From Batrachochytrium dendrobatidis JAM81 (taxonomy: Eukaryota; Chytridiomycota; Chytridiomycetes; Rhizophydiales), in NCBI RefSeq assembly GCF_000203795.2, contig NW_006281107.1:754965-818964 (forward strand): a DNA stretch of 64,000 nt, in the 5' to 3' direction. The notes beneath the pieces were generated by a model. That model was given only the letters and a program-made list of their open reading frames with translations. It was not told where the DNA came from and ran no database searches. The translations under genes and the position numbers were made by a program. Below, in pieces: positions 13,852 through 63,284 of this stretch. The stretch's first letter is position 1. Each line of letters begins with the position of its first letter.

Positions 13852-13927
13852 TCATTCCATGAGTCTGACTGTTTATTATGTACCTTGGCATCCTTATTCA
13901 TCATTCCATTATACGTGAATACGACTG
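13852..13927 (-). mobile_element. MITE family 1, terminal fragment
   Basis: Reading the minus strand from 13927, a good terminal repeat follows a TA: CAGTCGTATTCACGTATAA. Subterminal sequence shared with other copies comes next (ATAATAAACAGTCAGACTC). The opposite end is not recognised, so this is a truncated or decayed copy between bL9m and RER1. Confidence 0.6.
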
Positions 13928-14126
13928 TAAATAACAGCATCACATCAAACACGAGATTATTTCGCATCTCGGTGCAGACATATCACAAAGATGCTGTCCT
14001 TGATGAATATAACCCAAAGTGTTCAGACAGTATCACACAGAATATGTTGTCGTGTATGTACAGTGAGCATGAACCAAAGAAAATGTAGTAAAATCTCGCA
14101 CTAGCATAAAATGAAGTCCAGTTGGT

Positions 14127-15118
14127 TTATTTTTCAGATTTAGCTGCACCAGTATTGTATTGCTATATGGGGTAGATTATAATAAATCCACAGTATAAAT
14201 AATCAGGGTCAAAAATATCAAAGCCTAGATAAAAAGGGAATGGCAAATCGGCATTGAATCTACCTTTTTGTTAAAATCCCATGGTACATATTTGTACTTG
14301 ATCATGTGCATGATCTGGCGCTTCATGGTGATACTAAATAGGATGATAAAGTATATCAACAAAATCGGCCAGAATACGGGCAAATCAAAGACACTTGAGA
14401 GTGTACATCCAAATGCAATCAAGAGAGCACGAGTAGAGTAAAACCTAGATTTAGATGAATTCCGTCAGACCCAACGATCATTTTCAAATAAATAATTAAC
14501 ATGATCATATTCAGTAACTGCCAAGACTGATACTGTGATAGCAGAACTACCAATACGTTATAATGCCTACCAAAATTTGAATTCAGGAAGACGACGAATA
14601 AACGGTTTAAATTCATCGTCATGTCTGGTTGGAAGCATTGGCCCATCGCTTTCATCGTCAAATCCCTCTTCCGATGCAGGATCGAATTTTGGAGTCAAGA
14701 AGGCCAGCAACAGATTAAGCAGGTATATACCCAAAGCATATGTTACAATATACCAACCACCAGCAGTAAATGCACGAATAGTATAGAGAACACCTAGAAC
14801 CGCTGTTCCAGCCCATCGTGGGGTTGTGTAAGGTGTCAAGTCATCCAAGATCTTTTGACATTTCTGTTATTTCAAAGTCGGTTGTTTTTGGATGAATAGA
14901 TGGATCAAGGTTCCAAAAAGTATCAAGTTTGACAATGATTCAGTCGAGATGTCGAAAGATTGTATACAGATTGAACCATCAAAAAACAGATGTGTGAGTA
15001 TCAAGTGACGATGCAAGACATGGAGTTCAGAATAATCATCACATACTCTGTTTAAATGCACAAGCATAGACTGTCCAGGTGCAGAGCTAGGAGTAGCAGC
15101 TGTGGGCATGGCACTCAT
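14127..15118 (-). CDS. RER1: RER1, Golgi-to-ER retrieval receptor
   Basis: Exons (minus strand): 15047-15118, 14571-14851, 14264-14444, 14127-14162; 189 aa, the usual RER1 size. Diagnostic stretches are [53 protein letters not shown] and [18 protein letters not shown]. The four hydrophobic segments match the W-shaped membrane topology of the family. RER1 sits in the early Golgi and returns ER membrane proteins by COPI vesicles. The N-terminal ~24 residues are Ala/Ser/Pro-rich and not conserved. The ATG at 15118 is about 180 bp from the divergent PPP2R3C start. Confidence 0.95.
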
Positions 15119-15294
15119 CTTTACAATAGAAAATCAAAGTTTGTCAATTTAATGGCGGCCCTGGTTAACAGCTGTTAGAATGGCCGAATTCCGCCCACAC
15201 CGCATATTTCAACACGCTCCTGTGCGAGCCAGAATACAAGTTCAACACTCCGTATCTGCCATTTCACTCCAAACCCTCACGCTATTCAGTAAGA

Positions 15295-17323
15295 ATGAGT
15301 CTATTATCATCAGATAAATCTCAGTGGAATGTCTTGAAACACATTTTAAGTCGCATGCCGGATACATCTGCAAACCAAGACACTTCTCAGTCCAGATCCA
15401 GTCCTGCTGGAACTATTCCAAAATTCTTTTTTAAAAAGCAGGACAGTTCTAGTGCCATTAGACTTGAACTAACAAGGCTGTCGCTTCTGACCCTCCAAGA
15501 CAAGCACGGAAAGTCTATATTGTCAAATGATGAGTTGGATAAACTGTGGATATGTCTATGTTCTCATGCAACTATACAATCCAATGATAAATCCCAGGTA
15601 TTTCTTGAATCTGTTCAGCTTGAAATCTAAAAACTCGGATTTGGTGATGCAATTAACCTTTTTATTGGGGACGCCAATCCAGAGAGTATCGTTTGCACAG
15701 TTTCAAGCTGTTGAGGAGGATCTGGATACAAAGTATGCACAGTTCTTCAAACCATCGCTATTTCTTCGTTTTTCTAGAGATGATCAGGGTCGTATTGATA
15801 TTCTTGCCTTTTTTAACTTTGTCCTCCGTAAAGGTGCATTGATTGATTTGGCTATATTGTAAAATACTGTCTTTTTCATTGTACCTAATCTCATTATATG
15901 TTTGGTCAAGCGCATTAGTTTCGTTGATGCAGGCTCGTGCCGATTTAAGCATATACGATGAAGATGCAGATGGATATCTGACCGAATTCGTAAGTTTAAA
16001 AACACCGTCTTGAAAGCTGGTCGAGCATCTTGTATAAATTTAACTCTTTGATTTAAAGGAATTACAAACATATATCAAGACTATTATGCCTACTCTCAAT
16101 CTGCGCAACATTAGTGCACCTTTTGAGAAATTTTACATCTGTACTGCTGTTCGCAAAATCTTGTTTTTTTTGGATCCATTGAGAAGAGGTGAGAGTGAAT
16201 CTTTTGCAACCATTGGATATTCATAAAGATGCCAATGTATTGCTTTTATTTTGACAATATATTAAACACCCAAATAGGTAAAGTGGCCATAGAATGCATC
16301 TTGCTTTCACCCATTCTTACAGAGCTACTAGAGCTTCGCGACCCAGATCTTCCACGAGAGTATGAACAGACCAATTGGTTTTCATCTTACTCTGCTTTGA
16401 GAGTATATGGTCAGTAAATGTGTTAAAGTATATTAGCTCTACAATCGTTATTTTAATATCGAGGCTATACAAACCTTGAATTATGCAGGACAATTTTTGA
16501 ATTTAGACACAGATAGAAACGGTATGGTGAGTAGAAAGGAGCTCTCAAAATATCGGTCTCAGACCTTAACTGGCATGTTTCTAGATCGAGTTTTTCAAGA
16601 AAATCAAACATATAATAACGAAATGGTTGGTATACTTGCATTAAATAGTTTAAAAATACAAATATAATATTTTTATTTACTTATTTTGCCTGATTTGCGA
16701 ATGTTTATATTTAGGATTTCAACGCCTATCTCGATTTTGTTCTTGCAATGGAAAATATGCGATCTCCACAATCAATTACATACTGCTTTAAACTGCTGGA
16801 TATTTACAGTCGTGGATATCTTGACGAAAACATCATTTCTACATTTTTCCAAGTATGTTTGATCAAATGTGTATTGTTTTTGTGTTGAAATTGATTTAAT
16901 ATTTGTTTACAGGAGGTATCCAAAAAACAAGAACTGTTGGGATATGAACTAGTTCCAGCCAAAGATATTGTAGTACGTAGTGGTTTAAAGTTTATTTTTT
17001 AATGTATTCAGTGCAAAAGATCTAATTTTGCATTAATAGAATGAACTGTTTGATATGGCTCATCCAAAAGATTTAACTCGAATTACACTCCAAGGTGAGA
17101 TTTGGATCAATAATTTAATTATGAATCCTGCCAATTTACCGAGTCTGTCTGATGAATCAACTTTAGATCTGATAGAATGCGGAATGGGCGGAACGTTTAT
17201 CAGTATTCTCTGGTATGTATACTGCCATATATACTAACGAATTTTCAATATACTAATTTTCGAATTGAAAATAGTGATTGCAACGGTCTCCAGACATATG
17301 AGTCTCGAGACGAGGCAAAATAA
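15295..17323 (+). CDS. PP2A regulatory subunit B''-gamma homologue (PPP2R3C/G5PR), EF-hand protein
   Basis: Eleven exons: 15295-15597, 15683-15833, 15919-15989, 16059-16188, 16278-16409, 16489-16625, 16715-16852, 16913-16972, 17040-17094, 17167-17212, 17275-17323; 423 aa. Conserved blocks include FYICTAVRKILFFLDPLR, ETNWFS-like EQTNWFSSYSALRVYGQFL, the calcium-loop NLDTDRNGMVSRKEL, and MDYKTYLDFVLA-like DFNAYLDFVLAMEN. A second loop, YDEDADGYLTEFE, resembles an EF-hand. Family members target PP2A and, in humans, link to centrosome/cilium function. That link is of interest in a flagellated cell but is not shown here. The stop lies 29 bp from a MITE. Confidence 0.9.
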
Positions 17324-17351
17324 TAAGCGCATTAGTTGCTTTTGATCATTA

Positions 17352-17543
17352 CTGTCGTATTCATGTAAAGCGGAACACCAACCAAGGGTGCCAAAATACA
17401 TAATAAATAGCCAATTCATTAAATTTATTGGACAGCATTGTGTTTTCTAAACTTTTTGACAAAGCTATACACCCACTATTTATCCTGAAACAAAATAGTG
17501 GCTGTAAAACAGTACAAGTGATCCTTTTACGTGAATACAACAG
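17352..17543. mobile_element. MITE family 1, complete short copy (192 bp)
   Basis: Left end CTGTCGTATTCATGTAAAG after TA; right end TTTTACGTGAATACAACAG before TA, so the two ends are inverted repeats with TA flanks. It fills nearly the whole 246-bp gap between the stop codons of the convergent PPP2R3C and Tcd-type genes. It is probably an internally deleted copy of a ~500-bp element. Confidence 0.8.
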
Positions 17544-17569
17544 TAATACAGACTCCATGGCACATACAT

Positions 17570-19331
17570 TTATTTTATTCTCCATTTTTGAAGTGATACG
17601 GCTAGATCCAACTTCTCTTGCACTTTAGCCAATTGATCAGCAGTGTATAGAGTACTCAAATTATTCAGTGCACCATTTTTATGAAGCTCTGCCTCTTGCT
17701 TTGTGAGGCAAACAAGATTGCCAAACTCGGCTGGCTTGGTTAGATCCCAGCGGACTAGAATTAATTTTTCTGATGTGGCGCCAGTGAGCGCACTTCGTCC
17801 TCCCCAAATCTATGAATAATTTATCAAAAATGAATTATGATTAGCCATGCACATCAATCAAACCATACATTAGGTGGTTAGGGTTTACCTCGTCTACAAT
17901 AAATGCAGCATCGTCCGAGTTTACTTTGGTTGGAACGCTAACCAAGACCACGTTAAAAAAAGTCGATTAAAATTAGATATTGAACATTGAAAACAGGTAA
18001 TTTCGGATAAGCTTACTTTCGTTCACGCTCAGCCTTGAGCAAATCATGAAACATTTTATCAGTAATCTTTTTTTTTGACTTGACTGGAATTGGATCCGTC
18101 TTGAATCCACTCAATTCAGTCAGCACATATGAAGCCATAGCATTTCCAAACAATGCTGGAATTGTTCCCAAAACCGGCAAGATTCTCGATCTGAAATGAG
18201 GCAATGGGGCAAACTCTTGGGCATCGCCCAATTGCTGTTCGGTCAATTCAACCAGCTTGACATTGGTTGGTTTTTCGGTAGAGTAGACAACCGTGATTCC
18301 CTTTTCAATTTTACGGAGTCGAAGAAGACGGCGGGTTGAGCGAGCCAACGGATCCTCGAATGTGTCGCTAATGTCTGCAATCTGAATACGAGACGCATCT
18401 GCTTTCGCTCCTGCACCCATGGATGAAATCACAGGAATGTTATGATTGTGGCAGTATTCGAGTAGATCGACTTTAGTTTGGAGATTATCAATACAATCTA
18501 AAAGATCAATAGAGTAGGTCAGTAACAAAAGATGCTTTGTGCAGTATAGTTTCTTGACTATCCTCTTATGAATCATTGTGTGGCAGTCTTACCTAGAACA
18601 AAATCAGGGTTTCCACTTAGCAAGCGAGAAGCGGTCTTTTTTTCGAATAGTTCAATTACTGCATCGATCTTGGCATGAGAAACAATGTTTGCAAGGTGTA
18701 GCTGCATTGCCGTTACTTTAAATGTTCCCACATCCGATTGATTGGCAACAGCATGCCGATTAAGGGATGACAATGTTACTTGGTCAAAATCAATCAGACG
18801 AACATGCTCAATTCCTGATCTCACTAGCATGTGGGCCTAATAAACCATCAAATATAAATCAATGGCATATTTAATCATTCCTATTAGTCGAGAGTAAATC
18901 CATACAATCTATCACGATCAATCATGACTTGAAACTTACGGCATGGCTACCGACACCACCAAGACCAACAACAATCACAAACGATTTGCGACATTTGGCA
19001 ACTCCCTAAGTTTCAAAGTAGCCAGTATCAGTCAAGGAACGTATTCAAAAACAGTATATATTATTTAGCAAGCAACCAAACTGTGCACCTCTGGACCAAG
19101 AAACGCAATATTACGAGAGAGTTGCTCCTTGACCAGCAACTCGGCTTCTGGAGTGAGTATTTCAGTTTCAGGAATATCAAACTTGACCTGCTGTGCCAAC
19201 TCTTTCTTAAACTTTTGTAGTTCCACTCTTTTTCTAAAAAGTCCTTTAATCCAGATGAATGCAAGAACAGCTAGACCACCACTTGCTGCAGCAACGGCCA
19301 GCTGGCCTCGATGCGTTGCTGTAAAGTTCAT
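17570..19331 (-). CDS. tRNA threonylcarbamoyladenosine dehydratase (Tcd1/TcdA type, ThiF fold)
   Basis: Exons (minus strand): 19077-19331, 18940-19005, 18593-18836, 18017-18497, 17889-17937, 17570-17809; 444 aa. An N-terminal hydrophobic segment (residues ~11-30, LAVAAASGGLAVLAFIWIKG) followed by KKRV-like basic residues fits the mitochondrial outer-membrane anchor of yeast Tcd1/2. The E1-like domain has the nucleotide-binding VVGLGGVGSHA, LIDFDQVTLSSLNRHAVA, LDCIDN and ISSMGAGAK. These match TcdA, which cyclises t6A37 of ANN-decoding tRNAs with ATP. The start codon is 20 bp from a MITE end and the stop is 27 bp from another MITE, so both gene ends abut elements. Confidence 0.9.
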
Positions 19332-19350
19332 CCTCGACAAACTTGTTTTA

Positions 19351-19658
19351 CTGCCGTATTCGCGTAAAATGGAATACTTTTATTATTTGCAATAAATATT
19401 TGAATATTATTGCACTTGCTAGAAATTGTCACTCTCGATTCTTTAAATGCAACGCATATTGTATAATACAGCCAAACTATAGTCTTGAGTCTTTCCGCTT
19501 TTTCCGTTTGATACAATCGTGTATTATACAATTACCAAATATTGGGCTTTGGTGTTGTCAATACAATTACAAACTTACACATACCTTCGCGTCTGGTTCA
19601 AGAAACCAAAGAGTGCACATCTTGAAAATCTAGTGTTTTATTTGATGTGAATACGGCT
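19351..19658. mobile_element. MITE family 1, complete copy (308 bp)
   Basis: Left end CTGCCGTATTCGCGTAAAA after TA; right end TTTGATGTGAATACGGCT before TA. It lies between the Tcd-type start codon (20 bp away) and the 3' end of IFT122, so it must overlap the Tcd promoter or 5' UTR. The interior has no ORF. Confidence 0.75.
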
Positions 19659-19862
19659 TAAACTGAAAGCAATTTAGTTGGGACTCAACTCCAAATCAGT
19701 CCTGCTCTCAATCATCAGAAATGTATTCAAGCAATGAACAATATATAACCCTTCATTTTTCTTCCAAACGTATAGTGTCAAGTTGGTATGAAGCGCATGT
19801 TTAAATCGAAATGATGAGGCAACCAGTAATGTTACATCAAATCCATCACCAATAAACTCGGT

Positions 19863-31080: not shown

Positions 31081-31140
31081 ATTGTCACTGATATTTGACT
31101 GTTTTGTCGCATACATGCATTTGCAAAAAGTTGCAAAACG

Positions 31141-31213
31141 TGAGGCGTACGCGACTTGAACGCGCAACCCTTCGATCTGGAGTCGAAAGCGCTACCAATT
31201 GCGCCAACACCCC
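31141..31213 (-). tRNA. tRNA-Trp (CCA)
   Basis: The minus strand folds into a full cloverleaf of 73 nt including the discriminator A. The acceptor stem is GGGGTGT/ACGCCTC, the D arm is GCGC-AATTGGTA-GCGC, and the anticodon arm is TTCGA-CTCCAGA-TCGAA, giving anticodon CCA. The variable loop is GGGTT and the T arm is GCGCG-TTCAAGT-CGCGT. Internal A-box (TGGCGCAATTGGTAGC) and a B-box-like T arm are present. There is no intron. Confidence 0.9.
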
Positions 31214-31282: not shown

Positions 31283-31350
31283 TGCTGTTTTATTCATATA
31301 AAATGACACTAAACAAGAGTGTATAATAGGCAGTCAGTGTCATGGCATCG
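31283..31350 (+). mobile_element. MITE family 1, probable left-end fragment
   Basis: CTGTTTTATTCATATAAAATGACACTAAAC-like sequence, followed by GTGTATAATAGGCAGTCAGT, resembles the left terminal and subterminal sequence of the family (consensus ATTCACGTAAAATG, then ATAAACAGTCAGTCTCATG). The terminus is diverged and no right end is recognised. Confidence 0.4.
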
Positions 31351-34289
31351 TTGGTGCTAGTTTACTAAACACTGTGCTTTTTAAATTCATTAATGGTCAG
31401 ATAATCTTGCTAGCGTGGAGTGTTATCTGACAGGCAATCTATATGTATATCTCTCAACATGTTTTGATGCTATTCGAGCCCCATTACGCTAATCAGTGAT
31501 GATGGCTAGAGATGAATACATTGCACTCGTGGACGTTGAAGCAAACGACAACTCGGGTCAAAAACGTTCAACGGCGTTTGCAGACGTGATGGAAGCAGTT
31601 TGCGCTTTTGGAGTGTCGGCATGTTATGCAGGATGATGCCAAGCAAAAACAAGTAATGACCGCTTTTCTTGTGGGTGGTAACATTTGCACAAGATTCCGA
31701 ATACAGGATTGTGATGCACAGTGTGTTTCCGATTATCGACAACGCTACTGACTACATCATGTGCACCGATCAGTTGGCGCTCAAAGCGTGAACTATCTAG
31801 ACAAGTTTGGCACAACAGGATTGCTCAAAACCGACACATCTACACGATTGAATGTAGCCGTTTGATCAGCCGTTTTCATTTTGAAACAAACATCAACCTG
31901 TTCCTGTAAACATACGTTTACGCAATAAGTGTACAACAGATCGGGTGTCTGTCTGTGCTTGCTTGAAACATCCGTCAAGAAACCCCGCCTGATGCTTTGC
32001 AAAAACGTCAAAAAATAAAACGGTTGTTGCAATACCTGCTATACAGCACGTTACCATGTCAACAAGTCGCTCAGGCATATGGAAATGGATCGTGTCATGT
32101 TTTTGGTCCCGGCCCGAGTCAACACATTGCATGTGAAATGCTTTGCAATCAATCGGTTGCGCAATATGGCGAACAATAGATGCTTCGATATATTTCTCAC
32201 TCAATCAACAGCAGTTGGATAGCCCATTCTCCATCTTTTTTGATGATTGCCACTATTCATAGCGAGTGTAAAGCTAGAGTGTTGTGAGAACAGGGACATT
32301 TACCAGAATCGGTTTTGACATCAGTGTCAAGAAAAGGTTTACGTCTGCAAAATGAAACACGCTTAGTTGCGTATCCGTTTACAACAATCACAAACGTTGT
32401 GTCGTGAAACTGCTAGGTTGGTTGACATATTTTACAGAGTTGTATTGCCATCACCCAACATTGGTTGTTGCAGGCTTTTTTCACAGCAGCAATGGTAAGT
32501 CCACATTCGAGTCCCGATTTACAGGACACTGAGCGCGGAATGGCATTTCCTTGAATCCCGCATTACCAACGCATCTTCTCGTATGACGATCCTGCGCGAG
32601 AACGTGCTGAAAAATCAATGCGATGCGCCAAGCACTTGAAAAACAACGAATGGCCCATCAAACTCCCAATCAAAGGGTTCCGATTTGTACCTACAATGTG
32701 TATGCGCAATTCAACCTATACGATCATCCTTGTATATGGCCCTTTTTCGCGCAACCCACACGGTCATGTTGTTGTTGTGGAAGCGAGATGAAAAGTGCTG
32801 TTTTGATGCACCAACCAAAGAAAAAAAGCAAGTTGAATCAACAGAAAACAAAAAACTGCAGGGCTTTGAATACTACTCATCATGCAATTACCTCTGATGT
32901 TGGGACATGAACGGTTGCCATAATTTCGTGTCATGTACGTCCTGGTTGTGGTCACCATGACAACAATGAAACTTGGTTGACAGCCCTAGCTTGGCATTCT
33001 TTTACTACTACCGTTATGCCAGCTACTATTATTTCCAAAGAAACACGAAAAAGTAAACCTGCCTTTTTTAAAAACCCCTCAATGGCCTCCAATTGTCAAT
33101 GGTGACGTCTATCTCTGTAGATACATGAATGGCTTTGAAGCCCATTGATAAAATATTCATTTTTTGAGCTAATGGGTTTACAATTAGTCATGGCCTATTG
33201 CGAAAAAGTATTTTGATCAACAGATGGAATGCAGTAATCGTGAATAAACAAGACCACATGACAGGATAGCTGTGAATGGCTCACGAGTCTAGATAGAATG
33301 ATACGAGGCAATATAATTATATAGTAGAAACGGTACCTATAAACTTAATAACAGTGGCCATTAATCCAAAACTGGCGCACATGACAGTTTAACTCGAGCA
33401 TGACTATAAAACGAATAACATTGCTGATAATGTTTAAAAGTTTAAATATTAGATATTCAAAGCGAGTTTGTAGACATGCAGAGTTACATTTTCCAAAATA
33501 TCCGCGAATAGAGCTACGATTTGAATATTGACTGCACTTTTTGCTCAGAATTTCTGTTTTTGAAATCAGCATGGTACATATCAAAAGGAAATATATATTA
33601 TAGTAGATATAGGTAAAAGCAAGACCAGTTTAGTCATTACAATGCAGTTTTATCAATCCACACTTGTAATGTGTCCCAACAAACAATTAAAAGAGGTATT
33701 TTGTTGAATGTTTACAGTTATAGGCTCAAAAGCCGAAGAGCTAAACATTCATCATTTTCAATTCACAAGGAGAATACTAACATGCGTACCCAAGAAAAAA
33801 TATTTGAATAGTAGAAACAGGCCCCGCTTATACATGTAAATATCACCTGATAGTATACTTTACATTATTGATTGAAAAGTATACCGATGACATATTATAG
33901 CAGCAGCTCATGAAGCATCATGGTTTAATTCAGGTCCATGGAATTGAGCCTGGATTAAACCGGGTAAAATACATCGACAATCTAGTCATTTCTAAAAGGG
34001 TTTAAACAAATAAAGTAATTCAAGTTTGGCATACCGATCGAATCCAAAAATATTCTAAGCGGCGCCAAGCTTGTCGGTATCTCTCAAGCGCATGCCATGA
34101 AACAGTGTTTTTAAGCATATTACTCGAATTGTCATTATGACGCATCAAAATCATTATAATGGCCTTGTCACTATTTGTATCAGACGAACAAAAGTGCATT
34201 GTTTATCACGTTTCGGTCTGATACGTAAAGTCCACGAAGTCTTTTACAAGCACTCGAAGCTTTAAACCGGTGGAACTAATAGTTTGTCA

Positions 34290-34724: not shown

Positions 34725-34770
34725 CTGCCATATTCAGGCAAAATGATACAACTAAACATTGGCATAGCTG
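34725..34770 (+). mobile_element. MITE family 1, possible left-end fragment
   Basis: CTGCCATATTCAGGCAAAATG after TTTTA matches the terminal repeat at most positions. Only the terminal ~25 bp is convincing and no partner end was found. Confidence 0.3.
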
Positions 34771-37408: not shown

Positions 37409-40400
37409 ATGCGACAACGGCGAGGCCCAACTTGGACTGAGCATGAGCTGATGCTGCTTGCCCGAGCCGCCCATCATACCTACACAACTGGTCCGGAGGG
37501 CTGTTTTGAAGACAACTTATATCTCCAGTATCAAGCGTAAGTAATATATTTTGATTTTACCAGCTCCTACATTCCAGCACATGGGCCGATATACCATGCT
37601 GCTTGTTTGAGCGCGGCTACATTATTACTGCACCTGTTTTCCCCATTCCCTTGTAATTGTCGCATCTACAGCTCGTTTTAATCAAAAAGTAGTATGATGG
37701 CCAATTTACTGGCTGAAGAGGCAGTACTTTAAAACATGCTGGTATACACCCATCAAAATCTCTTGAAGATGAGGGATTTTCAAAAATCGAGCATATTGGT
37801 CTAAAATGCTCAAGCATCGCCTCATTCCTAATCCATCAGACTTGCGTGCAGCTAAAACAACAGCAGTCGTTTTAAGGGTTTATTTCCTACTGAGTTGGGT
37901 CTTATGCATTCTACCCTGAAGCATGTTGCTGATTGAAGCTGCAGACAGCATGTTATGAACAGCATTTATAATCTCCACCTGATACCACCATTTTTGCTGA
38001 ATCATACAATGTTTTCGCAACATCCGCTTTTATTGGCTCACGCTACCCACTTGGCTATTTGGCATGGTACTCAAATACCGAAAAGTATTTGCTACCATTT
38101 GAAACGATGAATATGATCGGTATTACAGCTGGTCTTGAATATACTTGTGCCAGCCTAGACCTGCATTGCTACTATTGTGATTTTCTATAGCCATGCTCTT
38201 TCTGCAATTGCTGCTTCAAAGCACAGTTGGTTCCCAGGTAAACAATACTTGGCCTCATTCAGTTTGGCCATAAGCGCTTCAATTGTTGTCAGTTATTGCA
38301 ATTGTGTTGGCCCAGCATGGTTTGAGAGATTAGGGTTGTTTCTCGCTCAACCAAGTTTTTAGCTAAACTAAAATTACATGCTTGGCATTGCCAGCACATA
38401 GTGAAATAACCGCTGGCCATTCTAGCTGATTTGTATAGAGCAATATTAGGATCCTTTTCCATGAAACAAAGCCACTGGTGTATTGTTTTTTTTACTTGTA
38501 GCATTGAGTTGGTTGTCTTGAGTATCGAGTGGATGGTTTTGGATCAACCAACTAGACTACCAAATAGCCAGTAGTGGTGGTGCGGATGAATGCGGATGAA
38601 GCTACGATTTCATTGGCTACACATTGCTTTAATCCGAATGTCTTTAGCTGAAGCTTGTTTGGATTACCAAGCAATATAGTGCGGTGTTTGGATGGCTGAT
38701 CACACCAGCTTGCGCATTTGTTCCGGTATCGCTTTGTTATGCTGATTTCAATTTTACGGCTTATTCGTGTGAAGTGCAACATTATCTTGCAGTCACTGCC
38801 TCTGTTTTGTTTTGGAAGACAACGGCTAAACACTTGATGCGCTTTCCTATCAGGGATCGATTGCTTCAATTGACGTTCTCAATTCTTCAAAATACCCATC
38901 ATGATTTACACGATTGAGCCACTTCTTTTTCTTGGCAGTCGTATACTACAACTAACAAGTCTAGAACTGGATTCATTTATTGTGGTTCAAATATTGAGCT
39001 GGACTGCTGTAAACATTTGGTCAGCTGTTTATGCAGAAACAAGTACTGGGGTTTCTTCGCGCTCATCTTTTGAGTTTACAAAACACACGATCTTGACCAG
39101 TAAATTTGGTTGCAGTTATTATTCCATGAGACTGGCTGTTTATTAATGTTTTGATTTACGTAAATACGATCAAAAACGCATTACTATGGCTTTGGCTGTA
39201 TGCTCTAATATTCCAAGTCTTACCCCAATGCATTTTCATATATTGCTGATTTTGTTTACGAGCTTTTTACTAATTCATTGGTTTTAAAATTTATAATTTC
39301 TTCTTGGTTGTCGATATTTGCTTCATCAGTGGTCTTGCTTCAAGGATCGTAACCAACTCTGCAGCGCATAATAATGGCAGTCATTCTAGCCCTAACCCCA
39401 TAGATATATCTATTCCAACAACGGATAGGAGCTGCAAAGCATGCATGGATCGGTGGAACAAACTAAGAGATTCGTTTCGATTCGTGTCTGATTTTGAAAA
39501 CAACGCCGTGGCCAGACCTCCTGGATTAACAGGATCCTGGTGGGATCTAGACGAGCGGTCTGGTCGAAAGACTGTGCTCACTTTATATCGCAAGGTAAAG
39601 CCATGTACTTGCCAACTTTTGATTGCTATACTGCACTTTTTATTAGCTATCTGCATCTCCAACGCATATTAATGAGCTCCAAGAAATAAGCGACAAGATT
39701 TTGGCTTTAACCTTGTCATCCCACTCGACTTTTGCGCTGTATATCAACAAATAGTCAAAGTCTGCTGATACTCCTGTTGCTGAATGTATTCTGATATCAC
39801 CAAGTATTTTATGCTATTGGATGATGTAATTTCGGTTTAATGCTGAAAGCTTAGCTTTGGTCTTGAGCAGCATGATTTGAATGCTTCTCATTTCCAATAC
39901 TCATTCTTTGAATCTATAATCCTTTTGGCTCGGCCGGAAGGCTTTCAGTAGCCATTGTATCTTTACTTTTTCCCATCAAATTTATGCCTAGAGAAACAAT
40001 TTGGTTTCAGAAGCTAATGGATGATTTGGCCTGCATCGAGGTCCATCTATACCTACCTTCCAATAGTGGCAAGGTGAAGATAGGTCAGGACATATACTGT
40101 CTTGGCCACATGGGTCTTCATTGATGGCTTGAGATGTACGAAATTGTAATGGAAAAGTGGCTTACTGCTTGAGAGCTCAGCCTTTGCCGTGACTTGGTGA
40201 TTGCTTAGCAAATGATGCATTAAGTACATGGGTTGATATTTGAAAATGTCGAGTGTTGATTCAATCGTAGCAGCACAGCTGGCAATTTTGGCATGCTTGT
40301 TTGAAATATGCCGAGCTTTTTACATCTGTGTTTTGGTGATACCATTGGATATCTACTTTGTTTGCATATTGATAGTTGGGTGTGAAATTCTCGGTACTCC

Positions 40401-46138: not shown

Positions 46139-47387
46139 TTTAAAATATTCTGTCTGTTCAGTAACCACGTAGGGAATAAATGGGAATAAAGCAAGACATC
46201 AAAACGCAGTGCAGTTCCAAATATGGGCATTTATGTTTATGCATATCGACAACGTTGGAATCCGCATTGGCAAGACAGTAGCATGACCAGTCATAAAAAC
46301 GGTATATCAATCACCAGATAATTCCAGCAAAAATGCGTGACAAGACCGAAAAATTGACGCACAGCAAGTAGAAACAAAAAATATTGTAATATTAGTACAA
46401 CTGACAGTCGAAAAGGCAATGGAAAGTGCAGCGGCAAAAACAAACTGTCAAAGTCGTTGTTTGCCCATCTTCCACTTGTGATGAATTCACATTCAACCAA
46501 AAAAACCATCACTTCAGATACCAACATGCACTACAAATCAAGGACAAAACATACCTGTGCTGTTGGAGGAAAATAAAAACTATAGGTCGGCAAGCAGTTC
46601 GAGTTGTGTCTCGACTTTTAAGAGTTTCACGAGTAAGTCTAAGCCCATTCAAATGCATACCAACCAGCAGTAGTTAGTATCGAACAAAAAGTTGTCAAGG
46701 TTACACAAACATGGATTATATCATGCCAGCAGACTATTCACATGATTCAATAAGTGCAATAGTAATAAAACATCATAAAACCGCATTGAGAACAGACAAG
46801 TCATTGCTACACTCTCAACACTGGCAAGTGCTTTCAAACAAAAACAAACTATCCAGCCAATATCCTCCGCCCCAATAAAAATAAAAACCTACCAATCCTT
46901 TGAAAGAACTTGGTCGTGAAAGGATGCGTAGAGGAAGAGAAAGCTCGAGCGAGTAAATAAAAAAATCTTGAAAAAAATATTTCCTGAGGACGAGTTCAAA
47001 TCTGAATTTTTAGAATGGCCACGCGGTGTTGCCACGCGGTTGAAGCCAAAAACGCGTCTGTTCGAAACATTGCCACCCAAGTCCAGATTAGGACTCATCG
47101 CTTCAATCCCATTCTATCCGGTAAACCCGTGACATCCACCTCTTTCAAAAGTCCTGGTTTCCATTCAATTGTCTTATCCTATTGAATGACGGCTTCAATC
47201 ACGTCTCAATAAAAGCAACGCTTTTTTATCCATTTGATATCCACTTGATATCCCATGACTTGAAGGATTGTCAACATCACTTGGCTTGTCAATGATGGTT
47301 GGATTTGCACGTCTTTCATTTTACGTGAATACGGCTGTAAATGTTGATGAATCAAATCCAAGATTCACTATATGTAATAAGGAAAAG
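46139..47387. other. Intergenic, EF-3 upstream region
   Basis: About 1.25 kb upstream of EF-3. It may contain an untranslated leader and the promoter. A solo MITE end is at 47315-47337. A 12-bp direct repeat (GCCACGCGGT) occurs twice at about 47020-47040. No convincing ORF is seen. Confidence 0.5.
47315..47337. mobile_element. MITE family 1, solo right terminal repeat
   Basis: CATTTTACGTGAATACGGCTG followed by TA is one of the best matches to the terminal consensus. No matching left end or interior was found to its left, so it is a fragment or a solo end. Confidence 0.6.
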
Positions 47388-47934
47388 TTGGCATAAAATG
47401 TACATGTATAAAACACTCGCATTGACTTTGCTTTGCTTTGGAATAAACAATGATTAAATATCCGCGATGCTTTCCTATTACATCTTGATTAGACACTCAA
47501 TTTTTGTTTCAAGTACAGTGCCCATCATATGATACACACTACAATCTTAAATCTGCCCCTTTCTTTCGTTTGGCATAACCATGCATTGTACAATCACTAA
47601 ACCTGAAACCATATTCATTGTAATCTGGATATGGGAACTGTTTTGATGTTGTCAATATAACTTTACTCATATCTTTGTTGTATTCTAATCTCATGTTCGC
47701 GCTTGGATTCAAATAGCAATCTCATACAATTATGCATACCAATCACATAATATTTGTATGAGAGTTGAAGAATGATCAAGTACCAAGGATGTGGGATTGA
47801 TTGCAATGTGAACATTCATTTAGCTTTACACAAAAATGAGTAAAAACAGTGACCAGTAAACTGATCCCCATCATTTCATGAGACTGCGGCTTACTATACA
47901 CCCCTATTTAGTAGTTGATTTTATGTCAATATGG
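47388..47934. mobile_element. MITE family 1, degenerate near-full copy (~547 bp)
   Basis: In the minus orientation its interior matches the copies at 51157 and 52223: GTACAATGCATGGTTATGCC, then the ACTCATTTTTGTGTAAAGC-type stretch. The end at 47920-47934 (TTATGTCAATATGG before TA) is diverged but recognisable. It ends 27 bp from the stop codon of the Mei2-like gene. Confidence 0.65.
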
Positions 47935-47960
47935 TAATAAAACTAGTAAATCCATCACAT

Positions 47961-50900: not shown

Positions 50901-52090
50901 TGATCATATTGATGGTTATCTAGAGAATCAGCATTATTGTAGTTGTTTGGAGGATAATCGCGAGAATGTTCGTTGTAGCCATTGCCTTCATTTCTGTTTT
51001 GACCATAGCCAGCATACGAAGATCCACCTCTGCCACCACCTCGACCACCTAAACAGTAAATATTAGAAACGATAAATGACCAAGCAAAGTGGATACAAGG
51101 GTCATGGGAAACCAGCTAATGGACTGAATGAATCTATACAAGATATGGATAGTATTACAATCATATTCACGTCAAATGGAATACTAAATATGAATGTACA
51201 GTAAACAGTCAGTCTCATCAAATGACGGAGATTGAATTGCTAAACATTGTTTTTACTCTTTACTTGACTGGTCTTTATACTCATTTTTGTATAAAACTGA
51301 ACGAATCTTTACATTGCGTGATTGGCATGTTAATTGCATTCCCAAAATTGTTCTTTTCAGCTAAGCTATAAGCTGATCTATGAGATTAGAATACAACAGA
51401 ATTTGATTGACAACAGTGAATCCAATATTTGGATTGCAACGAATGAATACGATGATCGTACAATGCATGGCTATGCCAAAAGGGAAGAAAGGGCATGTTC
51501 AGGATTATGGCTTAATTGTGAGCATCATATTATGGACGTTGTGTTTGAAAGAATTGGGCATGTTTAATTCAATCAATCTGCAGTAGAAAAAACAGAGTAT
51601 TTAACCATTCTATTTCAAGATAGTACTGCAAGATAGAGCTCCACTTGACGTGAATAAGCCGCAAAACTAGCCATCACAACACATTCCAATTCACAAGTGT
51701 ATGAATCTTGAAAACTAACAAGAAGGTTATAGCTCATACGGCAATGACATTTCAAATGATCAGCAGCTACAATTCTCTAAACTACACCTAGCATCTCATC
51801 AATGTACACTATCATCCAATGCCAAGCAGATCCAAACTGCAATGCAATTGTAGCTATACAACTAAAGAGAAAGAGCAGATGATGCTCAATGGTAGACAAG
51901 TGTTGCACATGGGTCTTGACAATAAAAATAAAGTACGGCTGGTTTCCCATAGCCATTCATGCTTGATGGAGAATACCAACGACTTACGGTAATAAGGAGC
52001 ACCTCTACGAGAGTAGTCACTACCTCCATGGTCTCTTCCACGACCACCACCTCGATTCCCTCCACGGCCATATCTCTCAGGTCCAACCAT
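47961..52090 (-). CDS. Mei2-like RNA-binding protein (two N-terminal RRMs, RGG regions)
   Basis: Exons (minus strand): 51988-52090, 50600-51048, 49943-50008, 49640-49711, 49413-49525, 49155-49280, 48812-49071, 48349-48716, 47961-48263; 619 aa. An RGG-rich start precedes a Gln/Tyr-rich segment. RRM1 is TLFVRNVSFDATESDIRRVF...RRGIVFVTYYDLRAAERARVAL, and RRM2 is GTVKLHLRDS...ELLARFGDIKKVRED...PLVEFWDMRSADSAL. This RRM1-linker-RRM2 layout (VHYSLPKAEE linker) matches Mei2-like proteins. An RGG/Tyr region and a Gln-rich tail follow; the Mei2 C-terminal RRM3 is not seen. Intron 1 (939 nt) contains a MITE, and the gene is flanked by two more. Mei2 relatives regulate meiosis and growth; the function here is unproven. 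Confidence 0.85.
51157..51662. mobile_element. MITE family 1, full-length copy (~506 bp) in an intron
   Basis: Left end CAATCATATTCACGTCAAATG after TA; right end ACTTGACGTGAATAAGCCG, where the expected TA is lost. Its first ~220 bp are almost identical, in inverted orientation, to 55531-55752. It lies in intron 1 of the Mei2-like gene. Confidence 0.8.
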
Positions 52091-52222: not shown

Positions 52223-52691
52223 CAATTATTTATAAAATGAAACACTGAATCAAGGTATCAAAATATATGATAAACAGTCCGTTTCAAGAACGAGTGCCAG
52301 TTTACTGGTCATTGTTTTTACTCATTTTTATGTAAAGCTAAATGAATGTTCACATTGCAATCAATCCCACATCCTTGGTACTTGCTCATTCTTTAACTCT
52401 CATACAAATATTATGTGATTGCTATTTGAATCCAAGCGTGAACATGAGATTCAAATACAACACAAAGTTGGATTGAGGTCAGTTGAGCTCTATCTGAATT
52501 AAAATGAATCTGACAATGTACAATGCATGACTACTAAAAGAGGAAAAATAATTATTGCATGATGGTTGTTGTATCTGGAAAAATTAAAAATGACGATTGA
52601 ATAAGCAGTCAATTTGTAGTAGAAAGACGACTATTTAACCATTCCAAAGCAAAGTCGGATACAAGCGTTTCGTTCTACGTGAATACAGTTG
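52223..52691. mobile_element. MITE family 1, full-length copy (~469 bp)
   Basis: Left end CAATTATTTATAAAATGAAAC after TA; right end TCTACGTGAATACAGTTG before TA. The interior matches 47388-47934 in inverted orientation (ATGTGATTGCTATTTGAATC and neighbours). It fills most of the 625-bp gap between the divergent Mei2-like and USP-like genes and ends 24 bp before the latter's ATG. Confidence 0.8.
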
Positions 52692-55752: not shown

Positions 55753-55798
55753 TATTATTTGAATATCAAGTTTTGGGTTGTTCAAACAAAAATATCAA

Positions 55799-56613: not shown

Positions 56614-57092
56614 TGGAGTTCCTCAACGTTGAAAAGCTTATTTCTCTTAACTCATAGCAGTCTATGCTATTTTGTTCGGGTTTGTCTATATCTGGTCTGA
56701 TGTTTTGTTGCATCAACTTGTGCCTACTCGAATCTTTAACTTTCTATGCCAGATTGACCAATGGCTATTCCATCCACCTTTTTGTTCAACCTCTTTCCAT
56801 TGATTTGCTTGAATAAATGACACTTGTGTAAGGAAAGTGGGTTCAAAGCAACCTTGTGCATCTTTATCTTTTAATATTGTCACAATGCATGTAGCTTATA
56901 AAAGTAATGACATGCTTGATCAGAGCATCAAGTAACTCATCCAACAGATTGTTCTAGTTTGTAGCTCAACTCTCAATAGTGTTCATTTTGATAGCAAGAT
57001 TTCACATTAGGTTTCTAGATTATTTATCAAAAGTTTGTAATGAGATCATCTAATTGCATAATGGTTGAGTTGTGAATTGAAACAAGTGCAAC
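56614..57092. other. Intergenic, between convergent genes
   Basis: About 480 bp between the small unknown gene and the carrier gene, tail to tail. No repeat copy, RNA gene or ORF of note. Confidence 0.5.
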
Positions 57093-58918
57093 TTACTTGC
57101 GGATGTAGCCAGATACAAAGTCAAAAACCACCAACAAAATACCACCACCAGGACCAAGACGCAGCACCTTGGGCATGAATCCCTTGTACAGAGCACCAAC
57201 ACCTTCCTCTTTAGCAATCGTGGCAATGGCAGGCAATGTCCAGTTGTACTTGAGCGGTGTTGTCATTTGGATTTGAATACGAGTCTTTGCAACATCAAAA
57301 GGAGTCTAAAAACGCAATTATTAGTAGATTGTTTTGTACAAGGCAGTATGAAGTCAATTCCTTTAATGGTTACCCACGTTGATCATGGTTCCGACCGTAC
57401 CACCGAATGCACCAGCAATAAAGTTGTTGAGTAGAATGCCTTCTTTGGACTCGGCCTTTGGTAGATTTGATCGAATTAAGCTAAAAGAAATTTCAAGGTT
57501 TTGAAAATCAGAATACTTGAATTTAAAATCTCATTCTATGCACTACATTCAATACATGAACTTACGTAATGACACCAAAGTAACCGCCATTCCAAGTACC
57601 ATGACGCCACATGGATGCTTCAAGACCACGACCAAAAGTAAGAGCTCCTTCTTCTTTTAAGATCTTGGAAACCACATCGGCACTGCTCTTGTACTTTCCT
57701 GCCTGTATAATGGCTTGTTTAACAACCCCATTGACTCAATGTGTTTTCCAAGCATATCAATACATCTAGTCAACACAACTTACATTGCCTTTGTCCTGCA
57801 TACTATAGCACCATATTGATATTTTACAAAAATTAGTTTGTCACATCACGGTTTAAACTAATATTATAAATCCTACCGAATCTTGATCAGCTCAGGAGTT
57901 GTTACAATGAATGCTTCCGTAATACCAGCAGAGACACCAGTCAGCACAGAAAGTCCTTGAGACTCTTTACAGCCAAAATGATGCATAAATAGTTGGCGAT
58001 AACCATCATTGGCTCCAAACTTGATAGCACGTTTGGGAGCTTCGACCATAATTGGTGGAAGAATACCACGATATAGTGCACCCGCTCTGTATGTGCGATC
58101 CATGCATGTCATGAAAAGAATAAGCCATTTGAACAAGTTACATTTCAAATCCAAGAATGAGTTTACCCTTCATTCTTGATGATTTTTTTGAAACAGTCGG
58201 CAATTGACTTGTACTCGGAGTTTCCTACTTGGATCTGGAATCTAGTCTTGACGACTGAGTGTTTAACGCATAGATAAAAGTAGATCTTGTTAATGGATTA
58301 TTCACATAATCATCAAATCAAATTGATCCTAAACTGAATCACCCAAATGCATATACGGTATTCTGCATAAATAGGCAATCTGACAATCACATCATGCTTA
58401 CCATCAAGAGGATACATTGTGATGATCTCTGTCACACCGGCAATAGCGCCTACATGCACCAATGGGGTCAAATTACAAAAAGGCGTTAGTAATAGTAAAC
58501 GAGCTGATTGAAATTATTGGTAACAAGTTGCTAATAAGATGATTGACAAAATCTAGAATGCATTACAACAAATAAGCCTTTGCTCAATCCCTGCAGTTCT
58601 AGATGGAAAAATACAACAGCCATCATGTTTGAATTGGCAGTTTCTACCAACCCAGTCGAGTGTATCAAACGTAGTAACACATCAACAAGTAACATGACAT
58701 TAGTTTTTAAGTGATTTACCTGCAAGCAAGCTATAGTGCATGGGCAAAGGAACCTCTTTACCAGGTGCTATAATATCAAATTGATACCAACATAGATCAA
58801 CGTGGTTAAATTGGGTCAATTCGCATAATTACCAATTGATACTCATGGCTAGTTCAAGTCGCTTATAATATATAACATGAATCAATGGTTGTTTCTTACC
58901 AATCTTTGTGGATGCCAT
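57093..58918 (-). CDS. Mitochondrial 2-oxodicarboxylate carrier (SLC25A21/ODC type)
   Basis: Nine exons, from ATG at 58918 (MASTKI) to the stop at 57093. Exon 6 is only 19 nt (57784-57802). Three carrier repeats show the signature: YPLDVVKTRFQ, TTPELIKIRMQ and NTPFDVAKTRIQ. Family-specific stretches are YRGILPPIMVEAPKRAIKF, GVSAGITEAFIVTTPE, RHGTWNGGYFGV and YKGFMPKVLRLGPGGGILL, which match ODC rather than other carriers. It exchanges 2-oxoadipate and 2-oxoglutarate across the inner mitochondrial membrane, supporting lysine and tryptophan metabolism. There is no cleavable presequence, as usual. Substrate preference is inferred. Confidence 0.9.
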
Positions 58919-59308
58919 TTGGTTGATAATATGTTTTTGCAGTCAAACTGCGCATTCAAATATTTTCCATTGTTGGTTTTCACCCGGAAATTTGTCAGCA
59001 AAAGCCAACTGATGCTCAACGAATATATTTAAATCCGCATTAGAATGTATTTAAATCCGCATTATGAATGTGTTTAAATCCGCATTATGAATGCAGTCTA
59101 TAGACAAGACTCGAGTGGTCGAGTCCGTAATACAACAATATTGAAATGTTTAAATCTGATCAGTGCATTCGAATATACAATAAAATTATTACATCAAGAC
59201 TCTGCAGTCAGTGTCAGCACACATTGCTTATAAAATACCATTCGAGTCCACCTACAATTAGATATCCAATATTAGATGTATATTTTCCGACTTTTGAAAC
59301 CCATAATA
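58919..59308. other. Intergenic; carrier promoter with tandem repeat
   Basis: About 390 bp upstream of the carrier gene. It includes the tandem repeat at 59028-59096 and AT-rich sequence up to a MITE. No ORF. Confidence 0.5.
59028..59096 (+). repeat. Short tandem repeat, about 3 units
   Basis: TTTAAATCCGCATTA(T)GAATG is repeated three times in tandem with unit lengths of ~21-23 bp and small differences. It is located ~110-180 bp upstream of the carrier start codon. Confidence 0.8.
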
Positions 59309-59680
59309 CAACCATATTCACGTAAAATAAAGCACTAAACAAGTCTCGGTATAATAAACAGTCATGTTTGATTGATGCTTATCCTACTCGGATTGTTTTT
59401 TAAATTCTTTAGTTTACTGGTCTTGACTCTTGTACAAAAATACAGAACGAATGCTCATCAGTCAATCCCACATTCTTGACACCTCTTTTTTTCCAAAACG
59501 AGTAGTATGACATGCAGAGTTGCAATGCTGAGATGGTTCAACTAGAGCGCGAATAAGTCGCAGGTTTAAAACACAAACGTTTCTATAAAGAAACCAATTC
59601 TCAAATATTTAATGTTTATTTTGGAATAAAACAGTCATTGCAAGACACAGAAAAGTGTTTCATTTTACGTGAATACATTG
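59309..59680. mobile_element. MITE family 1, complete copy (372 bp)
   Basis: Left end CAACCATATTCACGTAAAA after TA; right end TTTTACGTGAATACATTG before TA. The interior shares GTATAATAAACAGTC and TTTACTGGTC with other copies. It ends 56 bp before the ATG of the next gene. Confidence 0.8.
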
Positions 59681-59736
59681 TAAATCCATACCATCGACAT
59701 CTGTTCAATCCATCCTAAACCCACCACTATAAAGCA

Positions 59737-60493
59737 ATGGTAACCATTGGGGTCAGTGTCATGTCCATAGAAGGCGGCGTGACAAAGGATGTTGGTCAGT
59801 ATATTCAAATAGGACCCTGGACAAGAGCAAGAGATGTCATTCAGATTGCACTAGAGAAGATTCTTGGTTCTGGAGAGATGACTTCTCAATATGCACTCTA
59901 CGAATCAGAGTTCTTTCGACCAGTTGCTGAACCAACATCTCAAACACATGCTCTTGGTCGTCGACGGTCTCAGGATGTTGTACAACGTATGTATACGATA
60001 GTGTCGAGTCTCGGAGTAGAAACCTTGCAATCTAAACTTGATGACCGTTTGATCCACTGTTATAACTTGGCCTAATCTTAATCTTGCTTGTTCTAGGCAG
60101 AATTATCCGAGCGTTAGAGCCTGATGAAATCCCACTAGTTGTTCTTGCTGGCTGGCAACTCTCCCCGCCCATGGCAGCAACTTACTCATTCTTTATCAAA
60201 CCAATTGATCAAGGTGCTACCACATTTGGAACTTTACGGGATGTATGTAAAAGTTTATATTATTATTATAGCTTGCTCCTCTTATAGAGACAACTTTGGC
60301 TTGTATCTAATTGGATTTCATCCTATAATATATCTAGGAACAATGTCGCTCGCTTCCCATGGATAGATTGCGCAAACGATTAGCAACCATTGCACAGGAT
60401 GAGGTGTTTGCTGAAGAAGATTTGTGGGCTCGTCATGCTGCATTGAAGGATGCAATATCTATTCGTATACAACAGTTTCAAACAAAGCAATAA
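59737..60493 (+). CDS. Hypothetical protein, 3 exons, 183 aa
   Basis: Exons 59737-59986, 60097-60242, 60338-60493; phases consistent. The N-terminal ~130 residues look like one folded domain (TRARDVIQIALEKIL, IIRALEPDEIPLVVLAGWQL, YSFFIKP). The pattern faintly resembles ubiquitin-like or Ras-association domains, which I cannot confirm. The C-terminus is a charged helix (MDRLRKRLATIAQDEVFAEE). The gene sits between two MITEs, 56 bp from its start and 23 bp after its stop. Confidence 0.6.
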
Positions 60494-60516
60494 TCATGAC
60501 TGAGCACTTGGCGCTA

Positions 60517-60760
60517 CAGCCGTATTCACATAAATGGGTCAATAAATAAAGGTGCCAAAATACATAATAAACCGCCAGTCTTGTGAAAAGTGTTAATCTT
60601 CAAATTGACTGTCAGCATTGTGTCCTAAACCTGTCAAGCTCACTGATTTCTGCTCATTTTTATAAAACAATTGAACAAATGTTTACTTCTAGTTCATTGT
60701 ATATTTTGGAACAATGACCAAGATAAATGACAAGTGTTTTATTTTACATGAATACGGCGG
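60517..60760. mobile_element. MITE family 1, complete copy (244 bp)
   Basis: Left end CAGCCGTATTCACATAAA after TA; right end TTTTACATGAATACGGCGG before TA. The interior stretch GGTGCCAAAATACATAATAA is identical to that in the 17352 copy. It starts 23 bp after the stop codon of the gene at 59737. Confidence 0.8.
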
Positions 60761-61032
60761 TAATAGTAGTACACGTTTAATCATATCATCTTTAAACGAG
60801 ACACCTGGCTTTAATTCATTCCATCAGTCATATGCAGTATACTCATCAAGAATAAAATTTTGGCATAAATGTGTATTCATTTGTAATTATAAATGCAACT
60901 TTAGCAGATTACACACTGATGAAGCTGGTCAGTAAGTTTCACGTGCCGACTGCTACAGATCCCAACCAGTTTTCTGATTGGCCTTTTCTTTATGATCTAA
61001 TTGATTTCTCTTTTTGGCATCTAACAGAGTAT

Positions 61033-62670
61033 TCAGATACATGTCGAATTAGTATTTTTTAAACCAGTTAAACTATTGCTCATATTAGTTTGATCGAATT
61101 GCTGACAGATTAGCATCCATTTACCTCTAGCCTCCTGTAGTTTCCGACGATCTTCAGCCATGCCTTGTTTTGATTTTTGTGGAGTTTGGATACCCAGCGC
61201 ACCTGCAATAAGTCGTCGTGCAGTCATATCAGTTGTGACAGGTCGAAGCGATCCAGACGTTGGTGCACGTGGAGATTCAATGGTATATTCGATTGAAGGT
61301 TTGACCTATTGATAAAAATATTAGCCAAATAGTATCATTCCAATTAGCATGTATAATTACTTGACACATTTATATACCTGGACCTCTGGATGATTCTTGG
61401 TATTGTGATATGCAGTACATGCTATAATACAGTAGAATCAAAGGTATAACAGTCAACAAACCGTCTCGACTCAATCAATCATGTGCGACTAGATGAATTT
61501 ACCCAATGTAGAGGTTGGAAATAAAACAAATGCCTTTGTTTCACTCTCCATCTTGACTGAAATGTGTACATTTTGCTTTATCGACTCGCTCATCAGCCGC
61601 TGAATATTAGACTGCCTGAAGAAAGGTGGTATACCGCAAACTTCCAAAACTCGTGTTTCAGAGCCAGTTCGATCTAAATAGCCAGTCAGTATATGCTTTG
61701 AACATATAAACTGATGTGTTGAAACATTTAAATTACCTAATGGTAACTGATGTTGAGATTGGAATGAGGCGCGGCTGGTTAATCGGCGACCCCATGAACC
61801 TTGTCCAGATGTGCCTGTTTTTTCTAATACTGGTGCGCTCGTACTACGTTCAATAGGAACAGTAGATATGCTCATTTTAGCCAAACTGCCTTGAAGTTGT
61901 TCAATACCAGAATCGTTGGTCAAGCGACCTAATCCTGTAGCATTGGATGTCTTGGTATGCTGTACCACATCTCCTTTGACCAATTCACTTTTACAGCCTG
62001 TATCACTTTCTGATGGTGTTGCAGCATCTACCTGTTGGCGATCCAAGCGAGTATTTGCGCTTAAATCTGAGGATAGTTTGACCGATTGATTTGGGTGTGC
62101 AGACTGTTTTAGTAAGCTTGAAAAAGTACGCCGAGTATTACCTGAACAGTCCTCCTCATCACTATGACTGCTATTAGAGTTACTTGTGGATCGGGCAGTA
62201 GTTTTGCTGTTGAATATGTAACTGTTTCGTCCAAAGTCATTCTTTTTGGGAGGAATACTGCTTCGAGTTCCTTTTTTTTGAATAGAATCATGAATTGAAC
62301 TGGTGGATGAGTTGACTGGTTTCGAATCAGTGCAATCCAGTAGTAAACCTCTGTTCCATCTGTCGCTATCAATGGATCCCTGCATTTTGATTGGCATACT
62401 CAATGGCTGTCCCTGCTCTTTGTCAACACTCACTTTAGATTGGAGTGGTGAATGCTTTGCATATTTCGATTCAGTTGGCTTGATAGTCGATGCAGAATCA
62501 TTCTACCAACTCAAGCCGCATATGATGAGATTTATAAACAAGTCAAGCTGCATATCTATTTAAAAGTATAATTGCCATTGAATCAACCACACCTGTTTAG
62601 CATCAACTTGGTGGTCTTTGGATTGACTCTGTTTCTGCTGTTCCCGACGCTTTCCAGGTGGGATATACAT
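61033..62670 (-). CDS. R3HCC1L-type protein (C-terminal RRM-like and basic coiled region)
   Basis: Exons (minus strand): 62593-62670, 61737-62502, 61503-61673, 61378-61421, 61033-61305; 443 aa. It starts MYIPPGKRREQ, as in R3HCC1L/GIDRP88-type proteins. A disordered Ser/Thr-rich middle of ~250 residues precedes an RRM-like part (ETRVLEVCGIPPFFRQSNIQ, KAFVLFP). The conserved C-terminal ARRLIAGALG and EDRRKLQEARGKW follow. Some human relatives carry an R3H domain, which I do not see here. The molecular role in the family is poorly known; an RNA-related function is inferred. The last ~25 residues after EARG could be intron read-through, so the 3' end is uncertain. Confidence 0.72.
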
Positions 62671-62819
62671 TGCTAGAATTATATTGGGTAAGTTGTAATC
62701 TTGTGCAAACTGAACATTAACTCGGCGTATTTGACGAGCCAATATGATTCAGATGGTTGATATTCAATCTACAAAACATGTGTCAGCCATTCGATATTCT
62801 GCAAGTATAGTCTCATCTC

Positions 62820-63284
62820 ACCGCCGTGTTCATGTAGAATGTAACATTAAATAAGCTAAAAATGCATAAACAGTCTCATGTTTTCTGTCAGTTTATTGAA
62901 CAGAATTGTCCTTTTAAATCGTCGTGTAGAAACAGTTTCTAGTGGGTTTAGCATTCAAAACATGCTCTTTTACGTATAAATATCTACTTTTATGTCAAAA
63001 CTTTGTATAATAGATTGTCATCAACACTTGAACACGAGATATTGCGAGCACAAATGTCTTGGCCAACAATGTCAATGATCGTGCAATGTATGGCCAACAA
63101 AAGAGACTAACTACAGCTTGACTCAAGTATAATAAAAAATGAGTTTGTGCATCAAGCAATTCCAAACACCAAAATTAAAAATGCTTAAAGTCAATCTGTA
63201 GTAGGAAGTTGAATAGTTGACCATTGTATATTCTGGGCAATGACCCAGATAAACTACACGTTTCATTTTACGTGAATACGACTG
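62820..63284. mobile_element. MITE family 1, full-length copy (~465 bp)
   Basis: Left end near 62820 is diverged (GCCGTGTTCATGTAGAATG, then GCATAAACAGTCTCATG). The right end TTTTACGTGAATACGACTG before TA is excellent. The interior contains GATCGTGCAATGTATGGCC, matching other copies. It ends 87 bp before the ATG of the flagellar gene. Confidence 0.75.

What the first reader, a model, noticed from the sequence alone, without database searches (positions are those of the whole stretch)
13852..63284. Family of short inverted-repeat elements (MITE-like) with TA flanks, about 14 copies in 64 kb
Seen directly: the terminal sequence CAGYCGTATTCACGTAAAA recurs in inverted pairs bounded by TA. Complete pairs are at 17352-17543, 19351-19658, 51157-51662, 52223-52691, 59309-59680, 60517-60760 and 62820-63284, with a degenerate one at 47388-47934. 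Fragments are at 13852, 31283, 34725, 39125, 47315 and 55531. Shared interior blocks prove common origin. TA flanks and terminal repeats are the known hallmarks of Tc1/mariner-type elements; lack of ORFs suggests non-autonomous copies.
Basis: partly seen in the sequence, partly recalled or inferred. Interest (0 to 1): 0.8.

Follow-up and report, generated by a model that had tools for sequence, protein, structure and literature searches.

The report
Old mariner-type MITE family in chytrid
These repeats are short, non-coding leftovers of a cut-and-paste jumping gene of the Tc1/mariner kind, scattered in very many copies through the genome of the amphibian chytrid fungus; the kind is well known, but this family seems undescribed and some neighbouring copies appear to have overwritten one another.

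Summary
Confirmed. The terminal motif occurs 12 times (up to 3 mismatches) in the window against 0.03 expected, and 1,673 times (up to 2 mismatches) in the 23.5-Mb host genome, control 0. The host is Batrachochytrium dendrobatidis or a very close relative. Ends follow TA in 38 of 49 non-redundant cases (background 6.7%). All 10 elements with both ends classed have one left-type and one right-type subterminal region. Interiors hold fossils of a DDE_3 / IS630-Tc1-mariner transposase gene. So these are MITEs, internal-deletion derivatives of a Tc1/mariner-like element. I saw the transposase only as broken pieces; 20 near-identical copies belong to a block found mostly near contig ends, of which 14 were shown to share both flanks, so duplication multiplied them. 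The family is old (median pairwise identity 64%). New member of a known kind.

The parts
13850..13927 (-). truncated copy, left-type end only
   Evidence: profile hit E 2.9e-12, not in training set; end with 1 mismatch, TA
17352..17543 (+). complete short MITE, 192 bp, left-type to right-type end, TA on both sides
19351..19659 (-). complete MITE, 309 bp, right-type end at 19351; TA on one side only
31291..31392 (+). truncated copy, left-type end region
   Evidence: profile hit E 7.8e-13, not in training set
34725..34743 (+). doubtful solitary end tip (4 mismatches, TA)
   Evidence: no profile hit
38758..39169 (-). nearly complete copy with degenerate ends
   Evidence: two adjoining profile hits E 2.2e-16 and 1.6e-12, not in training set
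47319..47337 (-). solitary perfect terminal repeat with TA
47388..47937 (-). degenerate full-size copy; holds a fossil of the transposase region around the first catalytic aspartate; conversion partner of 52223
51158..51662 (+). full-size copy, left-type end at 51158; holds a fossil of the first-aspartate region of the transposase
52223..52691 (+). full-size copy, TA on both sides; 52298-52462 matches 47388-47937 as an island of high identity
55529..55748 (-). fragment, 96% identical to 51163-51387, inverted, about 4 kb away; its tip differs
   Evidence: not in training set
59309..59680 (+). complete MITE, 372 bp, TA on both sides
60517..60760 (+). complete MITE, 244 bp, left-type to right-type end, TA on both sides
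62821..63284 (+). complete MITE, 464 bp, left-type to right-type end; CA at the left border, TA at the right

Best explanation
The copies are MITEs: short non-autonomous elements that arose by internal deletion of a Tc1/mariner-like (IS630-Tc1-mariner) transposon. Inferred mechanism: a transposase supplied in trans bound the roughly 19-bp inverted ends and the different left and right subterminal regions, cut the element out and inserted it at TA, preferably inside TTAA, duplicating the TA. Shown here: paired TA-flanked ends, left/right polarity, shared end and shared coding fossils with transposase-bearing copies, strong divergence between copies, and only broken transposase in what was searched. 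Inferred: the transposition chemistry, the TA duplication itself, that the family is now largely immobile, and that some neighbouring copies are kept alike by ectopic gene conversion.
For: Motif 12 against 0.03 expected in the window and 1,673 against 0 in the genome. TA before 38 of 49 non-redundant ends, background 6.7%; T before that TA in 33 of 38, background 25%. Inward orientation in 15 of 20 neighbouring end pairs. Of 61 ends, 29 right-type, 20 left-type, 12 unclassed; 10 of 10 elements with both ends classed are left plus right. Transposase block of L038 against 16 MITEs: first-aspartate region in 7 of 16, 3' end in 10 of 16, reversed control none. DDE_3 above its cut-off for 3 of 6 protein pieces, among them L010; IS630 family model E 2.7e-8, below its full-length cut-off. 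No window copy overlaps a long open frame.
Against: No empty site was found (local only) and no second strain is held. No intact transposase in one frame was seen. 8 of 21 elements lack TA on at least one side, which I put down to age. Many ends are unpaired (35 of 73, though 16 of these 35 are the same repeated block end, two of them in L038 and L048).
Confidence: 0.93

Rival explanations
1. MITEs of another superfamily, PIF/Harbinger (Tourist-type, 3-bp TTA/TAA duplication) or piggyBac (TTAA duplication); both signatures are recalled.
For: The target context is TTAA-like.
Against: Right flanks begin with TTA in 0 of 21 elements, so a 3-bp TTA or 4-bp TTAA duplication is not seen; the linked transposase fossil matches DDE_3 / IS630.
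Confidence: 0.03
2. Not transposons but a dispersed functional or structural repeat with inverted ends, spread by segmental duplication or recombination.
For: The transposase-bearing block was multiplied by duplication, and alike copies tend to be neighbours.
Against: TA borders, left/right polarity and transposase fossils inside; in the elements examined the flanks differ from copy to copy outside the duplicated block.
Confidence: 0.02
3. For the alike neighbours only: recent local transposition or local duplication instead of gene conversion.
For: Several alike pairs are in direct orientation, some at regular 3.3-kb spacing on C31, as tandem duplication would give; groups of unlinked copies with equal scores hint at real later transposition.
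Against: In pairs that I could read, identity does not run tip to tip: an internal island in 47388/52223, differing tips in 51158/55529 and L011/L019, and one differing tip in L006, whose other end is identical right up to the TA.
Confidence: 0.35

Closest known systems
Tc1/mariner MITEs in general (Stowaway-type; recalled)
   Same: short, non-coding, high copy number, TA flanks, inverted ends, derived from Tc1/mariner-like elements
   Different: terminal sequence CAGYCGTATTCACG is its own; host is a chytrid; transposase spacing differs
PlantMar (DD39D) family, as described in passages of PMC7325037
   Same: Bd fossils have 39 residues between the second and third catalytic acids, the third being D
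   Different: PlantMar is reported from plants and a few oomycetes; the relatives of the Bd transposase, one of them from Gonapodya, have D-43-E, so the Bd spacing looks derived; no tree made
Bacterial IS630 family (NF033545)
   Same: profile match over the catalytic region, E 2.7e-8 for L010 and 4.9e-17 for P0004
   Different: below the model's full-length cut-off; eukaryotic host; spacing 39 or 43, while P0006, another DDE_3 protein, has 34

Membership tests
IS630-Tc1-mariner (Tc1/mariner) superfamily | insertion at TA | tested here: met
   38 of 49 non-redundant ends follow TA, background 6.7%; both sides TA in 13 of 21 elements
IS630-Tc1-mariner (Tc1/mariner) superfamily | TA duplicated on insertion (empty site with one TA) | tested here: inconclusive
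IS630-Tc1-mariner (Tc1/mariner) superfamily | terminal inverted repeats | tested here: met
   15 of 20 neighbouring end pairs point inward
IS630-Tc1-mariner (Tc1/mariner) superfamily | DDE/D transposase of the family linked to the same ends | tested here: met
   DDE_3 above cut-off and IS630 match; block ends in the perfect motif after TA; fossils in MITEs. Only broken copies.
MITE | short, non-coding, many copies, ends shared with an autonomous element | tested here: met
   192-550 bp in the window, 1,673 end hits, no long open frame overlapped; the autonomous element is known only from fossils
PlantMar / DD39D | D-39-D spacing and membership of that clade | tested here: inconclusive
   39 and D in Bd fossils, 43 and E in three relatives; no tree built
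PIF/Harbinger | 3-bp TTA/TAA duplication (recalled) | tested here: not met
   right flank TTA in 0 of 21

The most novel reading that the evidence does not exclude
The MITEs descend from an undescribed 'DD43E' lineage of IS630-Tc1-mariner transposons, shared by B. dendrobatidis and Gonapodya. It has died as an autonomous element in B. dendrobatidis but left some thousands of MITEs, a sizeable share of that genome's repeats, and these now evolve in local concert by ectopic gene conversion and could seed local inversions.
Probability: 0.3. Interest if true: 0.5.

Novelty: new member of a known kind. Interest (0 to 1): 0.3.

Why it matters
A review seen in passages gives 18% repeats for B. dendrobatidis with LTR and LINE elements almost absent, and a comparative study ranks it among the most repeat-rich chytrids examined, with most complex repeats of the chytrids it studied left unclassified. 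One window is 6% this family, and a rough extrapolation gives a few percent of the genome, so a named MITE family may explain part of that. Conversion between neighbouring copies would also warn against reading ages from divergence and would mark possible inversion breakpoints.

Tried and rejected
tRNA association: two copies lie about 40-80 bp from a tRNA gene (window 31291 beside 31140-31213; L001). By a hand estimate 0.5 exact ends would fall within 500 bp of the 63 tRNAs scored (of 1,527 candidates), and by eye I found one among the 100 of 188 ends listed, so I dropped it. DDE_1 (PF03184) rang nowhere, controls included, so it says nothing. A 1,467-bp structure with perfect ends (L006) looked like an autonomous element but is two inverted MITE copies around a stretch with a 125-aa open frame that I did not identify. 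Structure prediction of P0004 had mean pLDDT 41 and was not used. Solved structures gave no transposase. Viral contigs: 70 pattern matches, no relative confirmed. The left border of the repeated transposase block carries no terminal repeat and stays unexplained.

Full report
Observation. The motif CAGYCGTATTCACGTAAAA is present as claimed: 12 hits with up to 3 mismatches in the window, 0.03 expected, and 809 + 864 hits with up to 2 mismatches in the assembly of 23,491,484 bases, reversed control 0. Exact TACAGYCGTATTCACGTAAAA occurs 188 times, control 0. By profile the window holds 12 copies covering 6.0% (eight of the 12 were in the training set), plus a solitary perfect end at 47319 and a doubtful tip at 34725.

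Host. The only protein found for two transposase pieces among 5.8 billion was B. dendrobatidis MT418_8610, and the assembly size fits the published 22.2-23.8 Mb (passages). The window is C33:754965-818964.

Anatomy. In 295,522 bases held, 53 of 64 ends with up to 4 mismatches follow TA, but this counts one duplicated end many times; without that redundancy it is 38 of 49, background 6.7%. T precedes the TA in 33 of 38, background 25%, so the preferred site is TTAA with TA as the likely duplication. Right flanks start with TTA in 0 of 21 elements, and both sides are TA in 13 of 21. Ends point inward in 15 of 20 neighbouring pairs. In one search, 29 of 61 ends are right-type (four of them copies of the duplicated block), 20 left-type, 12 unclassed. 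The 10 elements with both ends classed are all left plus right; I left out L006, which is two copies, and the 51158/52691 pairing, which spans two elements, and paired 62821 with 63284.

Transposase. DDE_3 gives 24 matches. Fourteen of the copies that I read share both flanks with one another inside a duplicated block of several kb, and 12 of these 14 lie within 25 kb of a contig end; they are one insertion multiplied by duplication. A search with the N-terminal piece gives 22 matches, 20 of them 89-100% identical. A search with a 126-aa piece of the C-terminal half gives 148 matches (150 of 207 candidates scored; some are two alignments at one place), the longest frame with a stop-free match 149 aa; one search lists one of 172 aa, which runs out of its element. 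So I saw no intact gene in one frame; introns or unscored candidates could hide one. The block's first-aspartate region is found in 7 of 16 MITEs and its 3' end in 10 of 16, reversed control none, which makes the MITEs deletion derivatives of that kind of element. The second and third catalytic acids are D-39-D in Bd and D-43-E in three relatives (P0003 from Gonapodya prolifera, P0002 an MMETSP transcript, P0004 an unnamed ENA sequence). 'DD43E' with 'transposon' gives 0 papers in the held library. No tree was made, so a new lineage is only a possibility.

Age and number. Median identity is 64% over 117 pairs of 16 copies, and apart from neighbours the genome-wide matches of five query copies are mostly 66-88%. 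Some unlinked copies give equal scores over equal ranges (C6:237116 and C2:789616; C3, C5 and C7), which hints at later bursts. Scaling 12 copies per 8 ends gives about 2,500 copies genome-wide, range 1,300-5,800, near 3.5% of the genome at about 330 bp each. This is inference from one window.

Local likeness. Among hit pairs that cover the same query range with nearly the same score, 17 of 43 lie within 15 kb, against 30 of 3,594 of all pairs. The 43 are not independent: one pair on C33 appears under three queries, and clusters count several times. For 3 of 5 query copies the best other match is an inverted neighbour within 5 kb; I chose one of the three knowing this, and the other two queries showed no such neighbour. 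The 47388/52223 pair has a 165-column tract at 95.8% identity with 59.4% outside, 0 of 10,000 shuffles. 51158/55529 and L011/L019 have near-identical interiors with different tips. In L006 one end differs, while the other is identical up to the TA. I read this as ectopic gene conversion that stops where homology ends. Local duplication remains possible, above all for direct pairs.

Literature. Seen: PMC9926174 (passages and section 5), PMC6572847 (passages and section 13), PMC6284735 (outline and passages), PMC11115238, PMC7325037, PMC7386202 and PMC8533490 (passages). Nothing that I saw describes this family. Supplements were not read, so it may stand there as an unnamed repeat family.

Verdict. 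It is an ordinary kind of element in an important organism, with two leads (the D-43-E relatives and local conversion) worth following.

Noticed in passing
L033-L049 (own genome; 12 of 14 blocks with both flanks shared lie within 25 kb of a contig end): A repeated block several kb long, about 95-97% alike, carries the broken transposase; one copy lies beside an open frame that starts like a secreted protein but has no Pfam family above cut-off (L042:3027-3773), and L048 holds a peptidase S41 gene.
   Followed up: partly
L006:1501-2967: Two inverted MITE copies, 99% alike, about 400 bp apart around a 125-aa open frame; such a pair would fold into a long hairpin and could help inversion.
   Followed up: partly
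C6:236-237 kb, C2:789-790 kb, C10:222-224 kb of the own genome: Three unlinked elements of about 1.1 kb match the same parts of the 62821 copy with equal or similar scores and also hold transposase pieces: possibly a younger, longer subfamily.
   Followed up: no
L038 and L048: These two share the sequence to the left of the transposase block but differ to its right exactly after the TA; the other copies have another left flank. Not explained.
   Followed up: partly
window 59021-59093: A 23-bp tandem repeat, 3.2 copies, 94% matches, about 220 bp from the 59309 element.
   Followed up: no
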